DNA of 28,988 nt from positions 1 to 28,988 of the IMG/VR virus record IMGVR_UViG_3300043427_002472. The stretch is one strand, 5' to 3'. The translations under genes were made by a program, and so were the position numbers. The stretch comes from a virus. The notes under the pieces were generated by a model. The model did no database searches. It worked only from the letters and a program-made list of their open reading frames with translations, and had not been told where the DNA came from. Of the stretch, positions 6,871 to 26,290 are shown piece after piece (positions within the stretch are counted from its first letter, which is position 1; each line of letters opens with the position of its first letter).

Positions 6871-6892
6871 GTGCCAGTTCACGAAGTGGCAC
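6871..6892 (-). repeat. GTGCC...GGCAC palindrome, copy 4
   Basis: Arms GTGCCAGTT and AAGTGGCAC with a CACG loop. This copy is not attached to a stop codon. It lies in the 203-base gap between the candidate small RNA and the gene at 6809. The gap also holds a CCTATAATAGG palindrome (6914-6924) but no convincing gene. Confidence 0.6.
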
Positions 6893-9774: not shown

Positions 9775-10527
9775 ATGTCAAGAGGCATCATTTACCTCAT
9801 CATTAACAAACAAAACGGGCACAAGTTCATCGGAAACACCACACTTCCAATGAACAAAGAATGGGTGAATCACATTAATCACTCCAAGAGAATGTCCTCC
9901 GAACCAGTACACAAGGCATTCCGTCAGTATGGTGTACACAACTTCATGATAAAAGAATTAGATGAATGTGATACCTCAGAATTCAATGATAAAACAAACT
10001 ACTGGATTGAACAATACAAACCAGAATACAATCCCATCATTACTTCTCCTACTCCTATCATTGAACAGGTAAAAGAGATTAAAACTCCTCCCCCTCAAAA
10101 GGTAAAAAGAACACAACAGGCACCTCCACATCTTCAACCATGGAATGAACATACCCGTGGAGATGGTAAACACTTTGGTCTTAAGATACGTGGTAAGAAT
10201 CTTGAAACCGGTGTATGTACAGACTATGAATCAGCAAGAGTAGCGGCAGAACAGGTTACTGGCAATCCGAGAAACAATTCCAACATTCTACTTGCCGCCA
10301 GAACTGGTCGCAAGGCATATGGGCACAGATGGCAGATATTAGAAGATAAGAAGAAAAAGAAGGCGGTGTTTGGTGTAAGTAAAAGAACCGAACAAATTGA
10401 GGTTCGATGTGAAAGTATGTCAGCTGCTGTGCGTCAATTTGAGAGTACCGATAAGCAGGGTATTCTCAAGAGCTTACGCAATCCCGGACGTTACAGTTGG
10501 AAGGGTTATTATTGGTTTTATGCCTAG
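9775..10527 (+). CDS. GIY-YIG homing endonuclease with NUMOD-type C-terminus (250 aa)
   Basis: The N-terminal domain reads GIIY (4-7) and KFIG (17-20), the two halves of the GIY-YIG motif, and has a late acidic site (WIEQYKP, Glu79). The second Tyr is Phe, and the usual Arg after YIG (RWxxH) appears as KEWVNH, so catalysis may be altered. A basic, Pro-rich linker (90-130) leads to a DNA-binding half with two YGHRWQI/YYWFY-type repeats (NUMOD-like), with a Lys-rich patch between. Free-standing GIY-YIG genes in T4-like phages cut unoccupied alleles and spread by repair. It is one of two plus-strand genes, opposite to its neighbours, which fits a mobile gene. Confidence 0.82.
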   Translation: MSRGIIYLIINKQNGHKFIGNTTLPMNKEWVNHINHSKRMSSEPVHKAFRQYGVHNFMIKELDECDTSEFNDKTNYWIEQYKPEYNPIITSPTPIIEQVKEIKTPPPQKVKRTQQAPPHLQPWNEHTRGDGKHFGLKIRGKNLETGVCTDYESARVAAEQVTGNPRNNSNILLAARTGRKAYGHRWQILEDKKKKKAVFGVSKRTEQIEVRCESMSAAVRQFESTDKQGILKSLRNPGRYSWKGYYWFYA

Positions 10528-15914: not shown

Positions 15915-15936
15915 CGTTGATTACCTTGTTATTATA
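15915..15936 (-). promoter_or_regulatory. family C promoter/leader
   Basis: Minus-strand TATAAT (15931-15936), AACAAGGTAATCAACG. The stop of the methyltransferase-like gene is the TAA within TATAAT. Confidence 0.7.
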
Positions 15937-16450
15937 GAGTATCCTGCTGGGCGTGGAAGGTGCCTTGTGCCACTTCCTCAACTGGCACCCACTGATACGG
16001 AAATTTGATAGGTTGATCGAAAAAATATTCAATTTCAGGATGTAAGGCATCACATCTAAGGAAATTACCTTTTTTCAAGATATTCTTACCAGAAGAATCC
16101 ATAACATCTTCGGCATCACCAAAAATAGGATTAATTAAAACTAATTTATAGCAAATGTCACATACATTCAATCTATGACACATTTCATAAAAATTATCTT
16201 CCATATATTCAACACCATAGATGTTGCATAATGGTACACCCCTCTCAATCAGGGGTATAAGTAGATTTCCTGTGCCAGCACAAAAATCTATCCAGGTCTT
16301 ATCTGGATCAAATGCTTCAGAAGGAACTTGATCTAGAATTTCATTGACAAGAGATAGAGGAGTGAAAACTTCTCCAGTTTCATCAATCCGAGATTGATCT
16401 CTATCAATCTCGGATCCTGTATTTTTATTATGCTCATTAATTTTAGACAT
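15932..16450 (-). CDS. small methyltransferase-like protein, degenerate motif IV (172 aa)
   Basis: It starts MSKINEHNKNTGSEIDRD. The GEVFTPLSLVNEIL stretch (26-39) matches motif X, and WIDFCAGTGNLL (53-64) matches motif I (SAM binding) of N6-adenine methyltransferases. YGVEYMEDN (78-86) fits motif II. Motif IV, normally NPPY/F, is NPIF (107-110), and the protein ends shortly after, so it probably lacks full activity. It may bind SAM or act as a partner of the 426-residue methyltransferase. ATG overlaps the TAA of that gene by one base, so the two are coupled. Final residues come from the GTGCC repeat (VPVEEVAQ). Confidence 0.7.
   Translation of the reverse strand: MSKINEHNKNTGSEIDRDQSRIDETGEVFTPLSLVNEILDQVPSEAFDPDKTWIDFCAGTGNLLIPLIERGVPLCNIYGVEYMEDNFYEMCHRLNVCDICYKLVLINPIFGDAEDVMDSSGKNILKKGNFLRCDALHPEIEYFFDQPIKFPYQWVPVEEVAQGTFHAQQDTL
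15967..15988 (-). repeat. GTGCC...GGCAC palindrome, copy 12 (translated)
   Basis: GTGCCACTT and AACTGGCAC around CCTC, read as Val-Pro-Val-Glu-Glu-Val-Ala near the end of the small methyltransferase-like protein. Confidence 0.7.
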
Positions 16451-17730
16451 TATACAAATTGTTGTTGACTATTAATAGACACAAACTCAGAGCGTTTAGA
16501 AGTATATGGATGATTACCAGATTCAATCATTTCAATTTCATTGATTGCCTCTTCGGAAAGATTAAGTGCTTGGTAAATTTCCCCATCAGTGCTAGTAGGA
16601 TTCAATCCAAGTTTGTATGGATTAGGCACATACATAAACGTTCCTTTAGGAGTTCTGAAGTTACTCCACTTTGTTGACATTATAATTGCCCAACCAACTT
16701 TAGAACGAAGAAAGTTGATAATTGTTTGACCCTCTTCCTCAGACTCTACAATCATACTCAAACACCCACAACCACTTCCATGTTTACCATCATCGTAAAT
16801 TGCATAAGGATAACCACCTTCAGGAATCATTACTTTCTTTTTACCGGCAATTTCTTCTTGAAGTCTGCTGCTATAATGTTTTATCACTTTATCATGATTA
16901 ATGGTATTGATGATTAAGTAATCATGTCCTTCCTTGGGTTTTGTGGAAACCCAGTAGTTTTTGGCAATAGCATCGGCAGACCTATAACGAACGAAGTCCA
17001 AACCAGGAGTAAACTTTTTAAGATCTTTCCACATATGATATGCAAAGTTTGGAATACAATTCCAATCACTCAGATCAATCTCAATAAATTTACCTTCACC
17101 CTCAAAACGAATCTGAGTAGGTCCAACATAGGGTTCATTCTTAGTGATGTACCAATCATAACGAGTTCCTGCATTGAAAGTCTTAAGACCTTCGGTGGAA
17201 CTGTGTATACTCAGAACTTGAATATTCTTAGAGAAGAGAATGTCATGAATCTCAGAATACCGACCAGCATTACCATTACGCCACCCAGAAGGATGGATAT
17301 TTACAACATAACCACCTTCCTTAACACGGTTGAAGATCTCTTTGACGTGATGCTGCCAAATAGGATTACCGGTGTTTTGAGAGTTTTGGAACGGAGGATT
17401 GTTTACGGAAACATCAAATTTCATATTAGGAAAGGCAGTTTTAATTTCTTCTGAGGATTTTATGACGGTGAAGTTGTCGGGTTGCCAAAAAATCTTGGCA
17501 CGTTGAAGATACATTTCATTTTTTTCACCGCCATACAAACGACCAATGATATTTTCTTTGCTATGACCGTATTTAATCAGGCGAGAAAAGATACTTTTTA
17601 GGAATGTTCCAGAACCCATTTGAAAGTCTACAAAAGTGGTGGTAGAACTTACAAACAGTTCTTCAGGCAACAAATCAATCAGATCAACAATCAATTGTTC
17701 AGGGTGAACATCAAGACGAATAGAAGTCAT
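16450..17730 (-). CDS. N6-adenine-type DNA methyltransferase (426 aa)
   Basis: FVDFQMGSGTF (33-43) is motif I for SAM binding, and VSVNNPPFQN (107-116) holds the catalytic NPPF. IHPSGWRNG follows the NPPF region as in Eco57I/type I M-subunit relatives. It should transfer a methyl group from SAM to adenine N6. The second half (about 200-426) lacks the methylase motifs and may be target recognition, although no repeat typical of HsdS is clear. The gene overlaps the helicase C-part (ATGA) upstream and touches the small methyltransferase downstream, so all four genes form one unit. The role could be self-modification or a restriction system. Confidence 0.8.
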   Translation of the reverse strand: MTSIRLDVHPEQLIVDLIDLLPEELFVSSTTTFVDFQMGSGTFLKSIFSRLIKYGHSKENIIGRLYGGEKNEMYLQRAKIFWQPDNFTVIKSSEEIKTAFPNMKFDVSVNNPPFQNSQNTGNPIWQHHVKEIFNRVKEGGYVVNIHPSGWRNGNAGRYSEIHDILFSKNIQVLSIHSSTEGLKTFNAGTRYDWYITKNEPYVGPTQIRFEGEGKFIEIDLSDWNCIPNFAYHMWKDLKKFTPGLDFVRYRSADAIAKNYWVSTKPKEGHDYLIINTINHDKVIKHYSSRLQEEIAGKKKVMIPEGGYPYAIYDDGKHGSGCGCLSMIVESEEEGQTIINFLRSKVGWAIIMSTKWSNFRTPKGTFMYVPNPYKLGLNPTSTDGEIYQALNLSEEAINEIEMIESGNHPYTSKRSEFVSINSQQQFV

Positions 17731-19070
17731 TTAGTAAGATTCCAAGATGAATTTTGTCGGTCATTCCAAACTTTCATGTGCGATTCGATTATCTGTTTGT
17801 CAATGAAACCCTCAGAGACAAAAGTATTCAAATCGTTTGCACCCACACCCAACTCAGAACAAAAATCAAGTTCAAGTTCCGAGTTACTCTTTAGAACAGA
17901 AATTGCATCGTCAAAAGAGTTTGTTAGTGTTGCCTCTGCAAGATAGTGCATCTTGCTTGAAATTTGGCGGAGTTTATCATTTAATTCTTGATGAAGATTT
18001 TTCTTCAGTTTTTCAATTTTAGCATGTTCTTTCGATCCTGTGTCAAGAAATGTTTTTCCTTTTTTAAGGTCATTAGCACACTCAAGTTTTTGACGGAGTT
18101 TTACATTAAGACCTGCAAGAATTTCAACCGTCTCACTCTCAGGATTCATGATATCGACAGTCAATATTCTTTCTTTATTGACTATCATGTAGTGAGAACT
18201 GGAACTGTTAAAGATCTCACGACAGTAATCATCAACGGTCAGTTGAACTCGATGTCCATTTTCATCCAAATCCAAGAAAGGAAAAGTTGGAACAACATGT
18301 TTCAGTGCAGATTCAAAATCACATTGATGCTTATTGGCATACTTTTTTGCAGTTTCGGCAACAATATCGAACAACCGTGTATCACGTTGACCATCAATAC
18401 TCATTGTGACAACGTGCCCAACAGTTTTGTTGGCACCAATTGTTGAAACCCGACTGATTTTTTGAGTCAAAGGTCCAATTTCACCCCCATCATAGGCAAT
18501 TAGTACCACATTGATTTCTGGAATTGAGAAACTTCGTTGGCACATAGCGGACGAAATGATCCATACTCCCCTTTTGCCCTCAATTTTAGTGGCACGATTA
18601 ATCTCACCACGGACATATCTTTCAGATTCTCTGTTAGTAGTATAATCACCATTGACTACAATTACTTTATACTCGTCACCAAGACATACTCGTGCAATTT
18701 CAGCAAGTTTTTCCATCTCTTCTTTATTCATACTGACACACATCAAAACAGATTTGACGGTATCATTAATTTGATGCTCTAGTGCATATTTGTGTGTGTC
18801 ATAAATTTTTGCCTTGATCAGTTCTGGGGTAATTTTTCCAACAAGTGAATTGAAGAGGGATTTCCAGGTAGATTTATTGAAATTTACATCCTTAGAAATC
18901 TTAATAAGAGAAGGGTATAAATCGGGATCAACTCCCAAATTCATCATTGCTTGCGCTTCTTTATAGAAGGAAAAACGATGAAAAATAATTTCAACGATTT
19001 TTTTCTCTCTTTCAATATCACGCTCGATGGCATGAAGGCGTTGTAAAACGTCGTTAAGAATCAGGTTCAT
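17727..19070 (-). CDS. SF2 helicase second RecA domain plus C-terminal region (447 aa)
   Basis: The first 100 residues are a charged helical linker. SVLMCVSMNKEEMEKL (107-122) fits motif IV, and YKVIVVNGDYTT (134-145) a strand before motif V. WIISSAMCQRSFSIPEINVVLIA (170-192) and TQKISR (202-207) fit motifs V and VI of SF2 ATPases. No Walker A or DEAD is present, because they are in the upstream gene. The C-terminal third (about 300-447) is a Lys-rich coiled coil with no methylase motif. Together with the upstream gene it should form one ATP-driven DNA translocase. The ATG is two bases after the upstream stop, in another frame. Confidence 0.75.
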   Translation of the reverse strand: MNLILNDVLQRLHAIERDIEREKKIVEIIFHRFSFYKEAQAMMNLGVDPDLYPSLIKISKDVNFNKSTWKSLFNSLVGKITPELIKAKIYDTHKYALEHQINDTVKSVLMCVSMNKEEMEKLAEIARVCLGDEYKVIVVNGDYTTNRESERYVRGEINRATKIEGKRGVWIISSAMCQRSFSIPEINVVLIAYDGGEIGPLTQKISRVSTIGANKTVGHVVTMSIDGQRDTRLFDIVAETAKKYANKHQCDFESALKHVVPTFPFLDLDENGHRVQLTVDDYCREIFNSSSSHYMIVNKERILTVDIMNPESETVEILAGLNVKLRQKLECANDLKKGKTFLDTGSKEHAKIEKLKKNLHQELNDKLRQISSKMHYLAEATLTNSFDDAISVLKSNSELELDFCSELGVGANDLNTFVSEGFIDKQIIESHMKVWNDRQNSSWNLTK

Positions 19071-19072
19071 AA

Positions 19073-20074
19073 TTAGGAAGAAGCGGCACAGATCATATCA
19101 AAGTAAGAGTATGCAAGAAAAGCATCAGGAGGTTTTTTTCCTGCTGCCCTCTCACTGTTGGTTCCAGTAGTTAAAATGTGAACGTTGTCACCAATAAATT
19201 TGTTAAGAACTTCGGTGCTGTTATCAGTATGGGCACCGTAATCTGCTTCATCAGTCACAATAAATTTACTAGAGAAATTTTTGATGAGTGCTGAATTTTT
19301 ATCTACATTTGAACTACCGCATAGAGAGGCAACAATTACGATTTTAGCATCAGTTTCTAGTGCATCTTCAAATTTTTCTCCAAAGTCTTTATCAGACAAT
19401 TCAAGAAAAATCCAGTTCTCAAAGAGAGAATATCGGAAAAGTTCTTCCTTAAAACTATTGAAAGAACTCAAAAAATAGGAGGAAACTACCATGACTTTGT
19501 AGTCCAACAGACTGTGCAACACAAGGTAAAGCAAAGTTTTACCAAAACGTGCAGCAAGTTCTGCCATGATTCTAACTTTACCGCAGTAAATCTCCTTGAT
19601 AATGGATTCTAAAATTTCAATTTGCCAGATTACAAGTTTAATGTCCCTACGAATGTTTTTTCCTTCAAGTTCTGCTCTCCAAAGTTCTGCTGGATTATTA
19701 TTAGGAAAATATAGAAATTCGTTACCAGCAGAAGAATCTTTTAACCAAATTGCTTCTCCAGAGTCGTGCAATTTTTGCATGACTCGTTGGTCATACCTTT
19801 CGATTTTAGCAAATTCAGAAGGAATCCATGAAAAAATTACAAGCGGTTCACGATTATTGGTCAGATTTTTAAACCTTTTAGATACACATTCAGTCTGTCC
19901 GTTCTTGTAGATTCTTTTGGCGTAATCACTTTCATTTGTCCAAACATAGAATCCAACTTCACTAAACTTAAGGTCGTCCGCAACTTTTTGGTTGAGAGCA
20001 TAAACTCCTTGACGAATTTTAACGAAGTCTACTTTAAGATCCTCCCAATCTAAATCAATAACTTCAGAATCCAT
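19073..20074 (-). CDS. GIY-YIG-like nuclease domain fused to SF2 helicase first RecA domain (333 aa)
   Basis: Residues 41-125 look like a GIY-YIG nuclease of the T5orf172/MUG113 type: GFYVWTN (41-47), IYKNGQT (55-61), SKRFKNL (65-71) and GNEFLYF (117-123), in the usual order. Helicase RecA1 follows: Q-motif WQIEIL (150-155), Walker A ARFGKT (175-180), DEAD (275-278, in VTDEADYG) and motif III TTGT (302-305). The protein then stops at the usual boundary between the two RecA domains. It would cut DNA after ATP-driven translocation. The TAA is two bases before the next ATG. First gene of the cluster, behind TATAAT at 20097. Confidence 0.72.
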   Translation of the reverse strand: MDSEVIDLDWEDLKVDFVKIRQGVYALNQKVADDLKFSEVGFYVWTNESDYAKRIYKNGQTECVSKRFKNLTNNREPLVIFSWIPSEFAKIERYDQRVMQKLHDSGEAIWLKDSSAGNEFLYFPNNNPAELWRAELEGKNIRRDIKLVIWQIEILESIIKEIYCGKVRIMAELAARFGKTLLYLVLHSLLDYKVMVVSSYFLSSFNSFKEELFRYSLFENWIFLELSDKDFGEKFEDALETDAKIVIVASLCGSSNVDKNSALIKNFSSKFIVTDEADYGAHTDNSTEVLNKFIGDNVHILTTGTNSERAAGKKPPDAFLAYSYFDMICAASS

Positions 20075-20096: not shown

Positions 20097-20102
20097 ATTA
20101 TA
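20097..20102 (-). promoter_or_regulatory. -10 box of the nuclease-helicase/methyltransferase cluster
   Basis: TATAAT on the minus strand, 23 bases before the ATG at 20074. No clear -35 box is visible. A stem in the G/C-rich stretch 20103-20130 separates it from the cp12 gene. Confidence 0.6.
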
Positions 20103-20133
20103 AAGGGTCCTCAGTGCCCTGAGAACCCCCTGT

Positions 20134-20154
20134 GTGCCACTTTGTAAACTGTCC
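20134..20154 (-). repeat. GTGCC...GGCAC palindrome, copy 13 (degenerate)
   Basis: GTGCCACTT and AACTGTCC around TGTA, starting at the stop of cp12 (20155). Confidence 0.6.
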
Positions 20155-25073: not shown

Positions 25074-25673
25074 TTACCTAATGATTTCATAAGAAAGCCA
25101 TCCAGTACAGATATATTTTACTTCTGATTTCGGAGGTACTCCTTGATGCACATAAGTCCAAGTAGAAGGAAATATGAGCATCTTTCCCTCTTCTGGATTT
25201 ATCCTCATTCCATTAGAAAATTCCGTATATCCATCATTTTTAACATCATTCAAGTACCAAGTATAATTAATCACCCGAAGGAATTTATTTTCAATCCATC
25301 CGTCATGATGCCACTTGTAATATTCACCCGGTTTTGTTCTTTGAATTTGATATCCAGAATCTTTAGTACTTTCTTCCATATCGGCACAGAAAAATGCATG
25401 TGGAAAGTAACTATTGTGTTGATTACAGTGCTCTATGTACTCCTTAAAATTTTCATTGAGAGATTTGAAAAACACATTATCCACATCTGCCCAATCATTA
25501 TGATAGCTGATATTTAAATCAACTGATTTTTTATCGGGTGATGTTCGCCTGGAAAACCCAATTAATCCCTGATGTTTTCTTTCATCGTTTTCAAATCTAT
25601 TAATTACATACCGACAAAAATCCGAAGACAATGTGTTATTTTTAGTCCAGATAAGTGGATCCGTATAAGTCAT
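25074..25673 (-). CDS. 2-oxoglutarate/Fe(II) oxygenase, prolyl-4-hydroxylase type (199 aa)
   Basis: The DSBH core is clear: YKWHHDG with His122 and Asp124 as HxD, a long strand NYTWYLND, then YVHQGVPP with His176 as the distal ligand. A basic residue (Lys186) about ten residues later could bind 2-oxoglutarate. Such enzymes hydroxylate protein or other substrates with Fe(II), O2 and 2-oxoglutarate. The gene follows the other oxygenase gene at 25679 by five bases, so they are one transcript. A start at 25682 is possible but is TTG and overlaps the previous stop. Confidence 0.8.
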   Translation of the reverse strand: MTYTDPLIWTKNNTLSSDFCRYVINRFENDERKHQGLIGFSRRTSPDKKSVDLNISYHNDWADVDNVFFKSLNENFKEYIEHCNQHNSYFPHAFFCADMEESTKDSGYQIQRTKPGEYYKWHHDGWIENKFLRVINYTWYLNDVKNDGYTEFSNGMRINPEEGKMLIFPSTWTYVHQGVPPKSEVKYICTGWLSYEIIR

Positions 25674-25678
25674 ATTTC

Positions 25679-26290
25679 TCAATTCAACTGCAAATTAAAT
25701 GAAAACGTTACCCTCATTCCGTTTTCTTCTGTGATTTTCCGAACCGAATGCACCAAATATGCCGGGAATAATATAATATCGCCATCACTCACTTTTAGAG
25801 AGATTTCATGAGTAAAAAACTTTTTTAATTTACTCTCTTTTGCTCCTATAAAATTAAAAGAATCTCCATATGAACTTGGAGTAAAAAAAGAAGTAGGAGT
25901 GGCATTTTTAGCATAGTATACTCCTGACCAATATACTTTTTCTAATCCTAATCCACTGTGAGGCAAATGATGATGTGATTCCTGCCCCTGATTTAAGTGA
26001 TAAACATTATACCAAAAATTAGAAAAATTATATTTTGTTGGGAGATCAAGATTTTCAAACACATTATCAATACATTTTCTTATGTCAGATTTTAAAGAGT
26101 CTACGGTTTTAAGATCTATAAAATCATCGCTCTCAAGAATATTTGGAAAGGTCGTGTTTAATGGCAATTTCCAATGTCCAGGATATCTATCTTTCCTTCT
26201 AATGTCTTTGAATTTATATTTGTCGTGGTATTCGAATTTAATATTTAAAATAGGAGTTGAAAATACTTCGAAAATATTGCAATTATTCAT
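25679..26290 (-). CDS. 2-oxoglutarate/Fe(II) oxygenase-like protein (203 aa)
   Basis: The protein shows FWYNVYHLNQGQESHHHLPHSGL (92-114), with histidines at the first metal site, YWSGVYYAKN (120-129) as the strand after it, LFPAYLVHSV with distal His181, and Arg193 in GMRVTFSFNL, which would hold 2-oxoglutarate. This set resembles the cyanophage/bacterial oxygenase family recalled as TIGR02466-like. The exact substrate is unknown. It stands directly before a second oxygenase gene, and its coding region is AT-rich. Confidence 0.75.
   Translation of the reverse strand: MNNCNIFEVFSTPILNIKFEYHDKYKFKDIRRKDRYPGHWKLPLNTTFPNILESDDFIDLKTVDSLKSDIRKCIDNVFENLDLPTKYNFSNFWYNVYHLNQGQESHHHLPHSGLGLEKVYWSGVYYAKNATPTSFFTPSSYGDSFNFIGAKESKLKKFFTHEISLKVSDGDIILFPAYLVHSVRKITEENGMRVTFSFNLQLN

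What the first reader, a model, noticed from the sequence alone, without database searches (positions are those of the whole stretch)
15932..20074. Four-gene split nuclease-helicase/methyltransferase system with ISP-like order
Seen: GIY-YIG-like domain plus RecA1 (Walker A ARFGKT, DEAD, TTGT), then RecA2 (motifs IV-VI), then a methyltransferase with NPPF, then a small methyltransferase-like protein with NPIF, all coupled by overlaps or two-base gaps. Known: type ISP enzymes such as LlaBIII carry nuclease, helicase and methylase in one chain in this order. Inference: this is an ISP-like module split into separate subunits, with GIY-YIG in place of the Mrr-type nuclease. Splitting exactly between the RecA domains is unusual. 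It could restrict competing DNA or methylate the phage genome.
Basis: partly seen in the sequence, partly recalled or inferred. Interest (0 to 1): 0.88.

Follow-up and report, generated by a model that had tools for sequence, protein, structure and literature searches.

The report
Phage split translocating restriction-modification system
A virus of bacteria carries a four-gene DNA-cutting and DNA-marking machine, related in layout to a known one-piece bacterial defence enzyme but built from separate parts, and dozens of other viruses carry rearranged versions of it, probably to tell their own DNA from that of rivals or the host.

Summary
Four coupled minus-strand genes encode a GIY-YIG-like domain plus RecA1 (A), RecA2 plus a helical tail (B), an NPPF adenine methyltransferase (C) and a small protein (D). 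One correction: D's NPIF is not motif IV. All 33 D proteins aligned carry SAM-binding motifs X and I-III and lack NPPY/F.

The split is not a frameshift. The same A|B|C|D order occurs in Synechococcus phage S-CAM7. Among 54 viral loci, split and fused A/B forms alternate at least 8 times on a tree, always between the RecA lobes. Fully fused A-B-C chains also exist. A fused relative's model matches type ISP enzyme LlaBIII. The window's N-domain model matches viral T5orf172/GIY-YIG proteins.

Two comparisons support restriction-modification. The sister phages use the same genomic slot but carry Mom or Dam modification genes in place of C and D. One contig has five tandem C genes with near-identical catalytic halves and divergent recognition halves.

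It works like a type ISP enzyme but is not a member: no Mrr nuclease, no single chain, and the GIY-YIG catalytic Glu is an Asp. I found no published description. Cleavage, translocation and methylation are untested.

The parts
19073..20074 (-). Gene A (333 aa): GIY-YIG/T5orf172-like domain (about aa 40-125) followed by RecA1 / N-core of an SF2 translocase (motif I AARFGKT, DEAD, TTGT)
   Evidence: (model, pLDDT 89)
17727..19070 (-). Gene B (447 aa): RecA2 / C-core (QKISR motif VI) plus C-terminal helical region that may correspond to the ISP coupler
16450..17730 (-). Gene C (426 aa): gamma-class adenine methyltransferase (motif I VDFQMGSG, motif IV NPPF) plus C-terminal target-recognition region
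15932..16450 (-). Gene D (172 aa): SAM-binding half of a methyltransferase (TGEVFTP motif X, motif I DFCAGTG, II, III), no motif IV
20134..20154 (-). Operator-like repeat (GGACAGTTTACAAAGTGGCAC) upstream of gene A, one of about 14 in the window
   Evidence: 22 matches counting both strands against 0.03 expected
20097..20125 (-). Promoter-like TTCTCA-17-TATAAT upstream of gene A (sequence match only; matches in this region are not above chance overall)

Best explanation
The four genes encode one phage restriction-modification machine that works like a type ISP enzyme divided into subunits. C and D bind and methylate adenine in a short asymmetric target. A and B assemble into one two-lobed, ATP-driven double-strand DNA translocase. 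When C meets an unmodified site the A/B motor starts, and the GIY-YIG-like domain of A cuts non-self DNA. The phage's own DNA is spared because C/D methylate it. Shown here: domain identities, gene order, recurrent fission at the RecA1/RecA2 boundary, C/D co-occurrence, and swapping of modification genes in the same slot. Inferred: A-B assembly, translocation, cleavage, the target, and that rival or host DNA is the substrate.
For: Same split A|B|C|D order in S-CAM7. 54 viral loci with split, AB-fused and ABC-fused forms. Split/fused state changes at least 8 times on the tree and window A/B nests in a starred clade with fused relatives. Fused AB model matches Snf2-type translocases and the type ISP enzyme LlaBIII (4xqk, E 1.5e-10) and SauUSI. 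N-domain model of window A matches viral T5orf172/Bro/GIY-YIG proteins; Pfam MUG113 and T5orf172 above cutoff on family members; Y43, K57, G59 and D95 invariant in 44 of 44. C profile hits CamA, M.TaqI, BsaXI, BrxX and HsdM in the PDB. L024 has five tandem C genes with N-halves 71-82% and C-halves 18-43% identical, as expected of a target-recognition domain. In the same genomic slot the sister phages pair AB with Mom (9 loci) or a D12 Dam methylase (1 locus).
Against: No activity has been measured. The GIY-YIG catalytic Glu is replaced by an invariant Asp, and a PDB fold search finds no GIY-YIG match, so the domain could bind DNA without cutting. AB also matches chromatin remodellers better than LlaBIII. 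PADLOC and NCBIfam do not recognise A or B. No link to exclusion of competing phages has been observed.
Confidence: 0.7

Rival explanations
1. Modification-only or anti-restriction module: C/D methylate phage DNA to evade host restriction and the A/B translocase only helps C scan or release DNA, with a GIY-YIG-like domain that binds but does not cut.
For: Catalytic Glu replaced by Asp. C/D-like pairs occur in cyanophages with no A/B seen nearby (P-SSM2, S-CAM7 0910SB42).
Against: A/B is kept when C and D are replaced by Mom or Dam, which a purely C-serving motor would not predict. Y, K-x-G, R and D positions of the N-domain are conserved across very diverged members.
Confidence: 0.14
2. Host-takeover nuclease: the machine degrades host chromosomal DNA for nucleotide recycling while C/D or Mom protect phage DNA.
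For: Phage DNA modification can license attack on host DNA (discussed in PMC7824862). The module lies among many small unassigned phage ORFs.
Against: Presence is patchy even within one phage species (S-CAM7 isolates), unlike core host-takeover genes. Recognition-domain arrays suggest variable non-self targets.
Confidence: 0.1
3. DNA repair or recombination machinery: a UvsW/Snf2-like helicase with a T5orf172-type resolvase domain, with the methyltransferase neighbours coincidental.
For: T5orf172 proteins have been proposed to act in recombination (PMC7824862). Top fold matches of AB are Snf2 remodellers.
Against: Conserved coupling or outright fusion to methyltransferases, and replacement by other DNA-modification enzymes in the same slot.
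Confidence: 0.04
4. The A/B split is a frameshift or assembly artefact of a single helicase gene.
For: Fused relatives exist and the closest ones are fused.
Against: Same split in S-CAM7 and 15 other tree rows, with own start codons and junctions from short overlaps to +48 nt. Several have TATAAT-like boxes before B. At least 8 state changes on the tree. A second contig is identical at the junction.
Confidence: 0.02

Closest known systems
Type ISP restriction-modification enzymes (LlaGI, LlaBIII)
   Same: Domain order nuclease - RecA N-core - RecA C-core - helical segment - gamma adenine methyltransferase - target-recognition region. LlaBIII 4xqk is among the best PDB matches of the fused AB relative.
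   Different: GIY-YIG-like domain instead of Mrr-type PD-(D/E/Q)XK (order and nuclease type per PMC3874165 and PMC4872093). Split into separate chains in the window. Extra SAM-binding subunit D. Virus-encoded.
Synechococcus phage S-CAM7 genes CC030809_00053-00056 (annotated hypothetical)
   Same: Same A|B|C|D order with the split at the same place.
   Different: About 30% identity for A and B. N-domain more diverged. Not functionally described in the papers searched.
Synechococcus phage MA01 1074-aa protein and S-CAM7 0910CC49 704-aa protein ('type II R-M system restriction subunit')
   Same: RecA1 matches the AB profile (E 6e-16 and 6e-14), followed by NPPY methyltransferase and D.
   Different: Motor lobes fused, very diverged. 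Methyltransferase motif I degenerate or missing.
Mom-linked restriction systems of jumbo phages (PMC7824862)
   Same: A phage nuclease paired with its own DNA modification. The window's sister loci pair AB with Mom.
   Different: Those reported have an REase-fold nuclease fused to Mom. Here a GIY-YIG translocase is a separate gene, and the window itself uses a methyltransferase.
Type I restriction-modification (HsdRMS)
   Same: Separate restriction/translocation and methylation polypeptides; weak HsdM-type matches for C and D.
   Different: No HsdS-like subunit and no HsdR PD-(D/E)XK. Recognition is apparently within C.

Membership tests
Type ISP R-M enzymes | SF2 RecA1-RecA2 translocase motor | tested here: met
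   Motifs I, II, III in A and V, VI in B; fused AB model matches 4xqk at E 1.5e-10
Type ISP R-M enzymes | Order nuclease - motor - gamma methyltransferase - TRD | tested here: met
   Gene order A-B-C; single-chain relatives in that order (L049, L055, LR756508)
Type ISP R-M enzymes | N-terminal Mrr-family PD-(D/E/Q)XK nuclease | tested here: not met
   N-domain matches T5orf172/GIY-YIG proteins
Type ISP R-M enzymes | All functions in one polypeptide | tested here: not met
   Separate ORFs in the window
Type ISP R-M enzymes | Alpha-helical coupler between motor and methyltransferase | tested here: inconclusive
   Fused AB model ends in a mostly helical stretch, about aa 606-760; not compared on its own
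Type ISP R-M enzymes | Gamma-class adenine methyltransferase with C-terminal TRD | tested here: met
   Motif I before NPPF; M.TaqI and CamA hits; C-terminal halves hypervariable in the L024 array
Type ISP R-M enzymes | ATP-driven translocation and cleavage between head-to-head sites | not testable with these tools
   Biochemistry needed
GIY-YIG nuclease superfamily (T5orf172/MUG113 type) | Fold of the GIY-YIG core | tested here: met
   Model of window A 1-167 (pLDDT 89) matches T5orf172/Bro/GIY-YIG viral proteins, prob 0.9-1.0; no PDB match
GIY-YIG nuclease superfamily (T5orf172/MUG113 type) | Tyr of the first motif, (Y/K)-x-G of the second, Arg of helix 1 | tested here: met
   Y43, K57, G59 in 44/44; R67 in 34/44
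GIY-YIG nuclease superfamily (T5orf172/MUG113 type) | Catalytic Glu in the third helix | tested here: not met
   Asp95 in 44/44 at the presumed position (equivalence inferred from the model's helix 94-105, not from a structural superposition); E119 conserved nearby (38/44)
Type I R-M (HsdRMS) | Separate HsdS specificity subunit | tested here: not met
   No such ORF in the module; recognition half appears to be part of C

The most novel reading that the evidence does not exclude
A virus-restricted family of motor-driven restriction systems with interchangeable parts: one GIY-YIG translocase core, recurrently split between its two motor lobes, combined with swappable protection chemistry (adenine methylation by C/D, Mom acylation, or Dam) and with arrays of target-recognition modules. 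D supplies the SAM-binding half to partners that keep only the catalytic NPPY half, a methyltransferase active site assembled from two chains.
Probability: 0.35. Interest if true: 0.88.

Novelty: new variant of a known kind. Interest (0 to 1): 0.72.

Why it matters
It would show that viruses of bacteria carry their own translocating restriction machines, not only solitary methyltransferases, and diversify them by gene fission, fusion and cassette exchange. A motor cut between its RecA lobes in many lineages offers a natural two-chain system for studying how SF2 translocases assemble. The swap of methyltransferase for Mom in one genomic slot makes it testable whether one restriction motor can read different self-marks. 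S-CAM7 and MA01 are named isolates infecting Synechococcus, so phage-phage exclusion by such systems can be examined directly.

Tried and rejected
Simple frameshift: rejected. NPIF as a methyltransferase motif in D: rejected. Bacterial origin or bacterial homologues: two scans of 84,980 species genomes gave 72 and 157 pattern matches and no confirmed relative; these scans need exact short peptide patterns, so distant relatives could be missed. DNA-level relatives among named phages: none. PDB sequence search for A/B and for the N-domain: nothing useful. PDB fold search for the N-domain: no GIY-YIG hit. The about 290-aa protein C' after AB in L009-L018 as a degenerate C: suggestive only (hhalign probability 27-38%), so not claimed. 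B-based scans of viral contigs found only the near-identical contig, because B is too diverged for the pattern method. P-SSM2_035 as a fused form: rejected, no profile match. Promoter and terminator matches in the module region are not clearly above shuffled counts. PADLOC and NCBIfam gave no system assignment.

Full report
WHAT IS THERE. The window is a 28,988-bp IMG/VR virus record. On its minus strand four genes run head to tail: A 20074-19073, B 19070-17727, C 17730-16450 and D 16450-15932, with a 2-nt gap, a 4-nt overlap and a 1-nt overlap. A second contig, IMGVR_UViG_3300044701_002984, is identical over 10,620 bp and includes all junctions.

DOMAINS. A: the first 167 residues give a confident model (pLDDT 89). 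Its fold matches in the viral library are dominated by T5orf172, Bro and GIY-YIG proteins (prob 0.9-1.0). Family members pass Pfam cutoffs for MUG113 (L051, 1.7e-5) and T5orf172 (L055, 1.1e-5; L056, 9.2e-6). The window's own T5orf172 score is marginal (0.094), and a PDB fold search finds nothing. Y43, K57, G59 and D95 are invariant in 44 sequences, and R67 is present in 34. The usual catalytic Glu appears to be this Asp, so nuclease activity is plausible but unproven. RecA1 motifs follow (AARFGKT, DEAD, TTGT). B carries the RecA2 motifs. A 761-aa fused relative (L009; about 42% identical to A and 34% to B) was modelled as one chain (pLDDT 81.5, pTM 0.79). It matches Snf2-type translocases and, at E 1.5e-10, the type ISP enzyme LlaBIII (4xqk), then SauUSI. 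Window A and B align to L009 residues 7-332 and 347-755, so the break falls between the two lobes.

C is a gamma-class adenine methyltransferase: motif I VDFQMGSG precedes NPPF, Pfam Eco57I 8e-6, and the family profile hits CamA, M.TaqI, BsaXI, BrxX and HsdM. D has motif X (TGEVFTP), I, II and III but no motif IV; 0 of 33 aligned D proteins have NPP[YFW].

RELATIVES. tblastn found the same four-gene order, with the same split, in Synechococcus phage S-CAM7 isolate 0809CC03, and a 1255-aa single chain (GIY-YIG-like, RecA1, RecA2, NPPY methyltransferase) in a 484-kb uncultured phage, LR756508. A profile scan of 2.9 million viral contigs gave 54 loci. ORF analysis shows four architectures: A|B|C|D; AB|C|D; ABC|D (L049, L055, L056); and AB fused without C/D (L009-L018). 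Two scans of 84,980 bacterial and archaeal species gave no confirmed relative, so the family looks virus-restricted within the reach of that method.

THE SPLIT. In a 43-row maximum-likelihood tree, split and fused states change 10 times, at least 8 on well supported branches, and the window (split) lies inside a starred clade with nine fused sequences. Junctions range from short overlaps to 48-nt gaps, and several B genes have a TATAAT-like box before them. The boundary between the RecA lobes is therefore a recurrent fission/fusion point, not a lesion in one genome.

EVIDENCE FOR RESTRICTION-MODIFICATION. (i) Synteny: the genes on both sides of the window module also flank the AB module of L010, L011, L012, L017 and L018. 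In that slot AB is followed by an about 290-aa ORF (C', relation to C unproven) and then a Mom acyltransferase (L009, L010, L012-L018: Pfam 2e-36 to 2e-18 where scanned, otherwise by tblastn) or a D12 Dam methylase (L011, 2e-20). In this clade the motor-nuclease is thus always paired with some DNA-modification gene. (ii) L024 carries A|B, five tandem C genes and then D. The N-terminal halves of the five C proteins are 71-82% identical and the C-terminal halves 18-43%, and each gene after the first is preceded by a repeated TTGACTT...TATAAT-like sequence. This is what a set of alternative recognition modules serving one motor would look like. (iii) Fully fused chains reproduce the type ISP order.

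D. In several cyanophages (S-CAM7 0910CC49, Bellamy, ACG-2014f, MA01, P-SSM2, S-CAM7 0910SB42) the partner gene matches the C profile only from about position 68-101 of 400 onward, while D matches positions 4-67; LR756508 shows the same division by alignment. D may therefore be the SAM-binding half of a two-chain methyltransferase. In the window C keeps its own motif I, so D could be accessory there. This step is inference.

MECHANISM. Most likely A and B form one ATP-driven translocase with a GIY-YIG-like nuclease domain, recruited to unmodified sites by C (with D). Modified sites are ignored, so phage DNA is spared. Domain identities, order, recurrent splitting and modification-gene exchange are shown; assembly, translocation, cleavage and the biological target are inferred.

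COMPARISON. Type ISP enzymes are defined as a single chain of Mrr nuclease, motor, coupler, gamma methyltransferase and TRD (PMC3874165, PMC4872093). Motor, order and methyltransferase class are met; Mrr nuclease and single chain are not. It works like an ISP enzyme without being one. A survey of jumbo phages (PMC7824862) predicted Mom-linked nucleases and noted T5orf172 proteins, but the passages read do not describe this module. The searches made in the held library found no paper describing these parts together; subscription papers and preprints were not searched.

Noticed in passing
window, about 14 sites including 6872-6892, 15967-15987, 20134-20154: A 21-bp operator-like repeat, TGCCAGTTNNNNAAGTGGCAC with up to 3 mismatches: 22 matches counting both strands against 0.03 expected. 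One copy lies upstream of gene A and one overlaps the 3' end of D, upstream of the next gene; it may mark transcription units of this phage.
   Followed up: partly
window 16386-16415: A 13-bp inverted repeat with a 4-nt loop (ATCCGAGATTGATCTCTATCAATCTCGGAT) inside the first codons of D, just after the C/D junction; it could affect D translation.
   Followed up: no
L024 3311-9817: Five tandem C genes with near-identical catalytic halves and divergent C-terminal halves, each after the first preceded by a repeated promoter-like intergenic sequence; a possible specificity array.
   Followed up: partly
L009-L018, e.g. L017 4570-6091: AB is followed by an unassigned protein of about 290 aa and a Mom (or, in L011, D12 Dam) modification gene, in the same genomic slot as the window's C and D where synteny could be checked.
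   Followed up: yes
window 9775-10527: HNH/homing endonuclease-like ORF (phrog_3404, 4e-33).
   Followed up: no
window 25074-26290: Two adjacent ORFs with 2OG-Fe(II) oxygenase matches (phrog_61 6e-40; phrog_81 2e-28).
   Followed up: no
L063, L065, L067, L068: D-like genes beside or near NPPY-bearing genes in cyanophages; in P-SSM2 and S-CAM7 0910SB42 no A/B-like gene was seen in the stretch read, which suggests an independent two-gene methyltransferase.
   Followed up: partly
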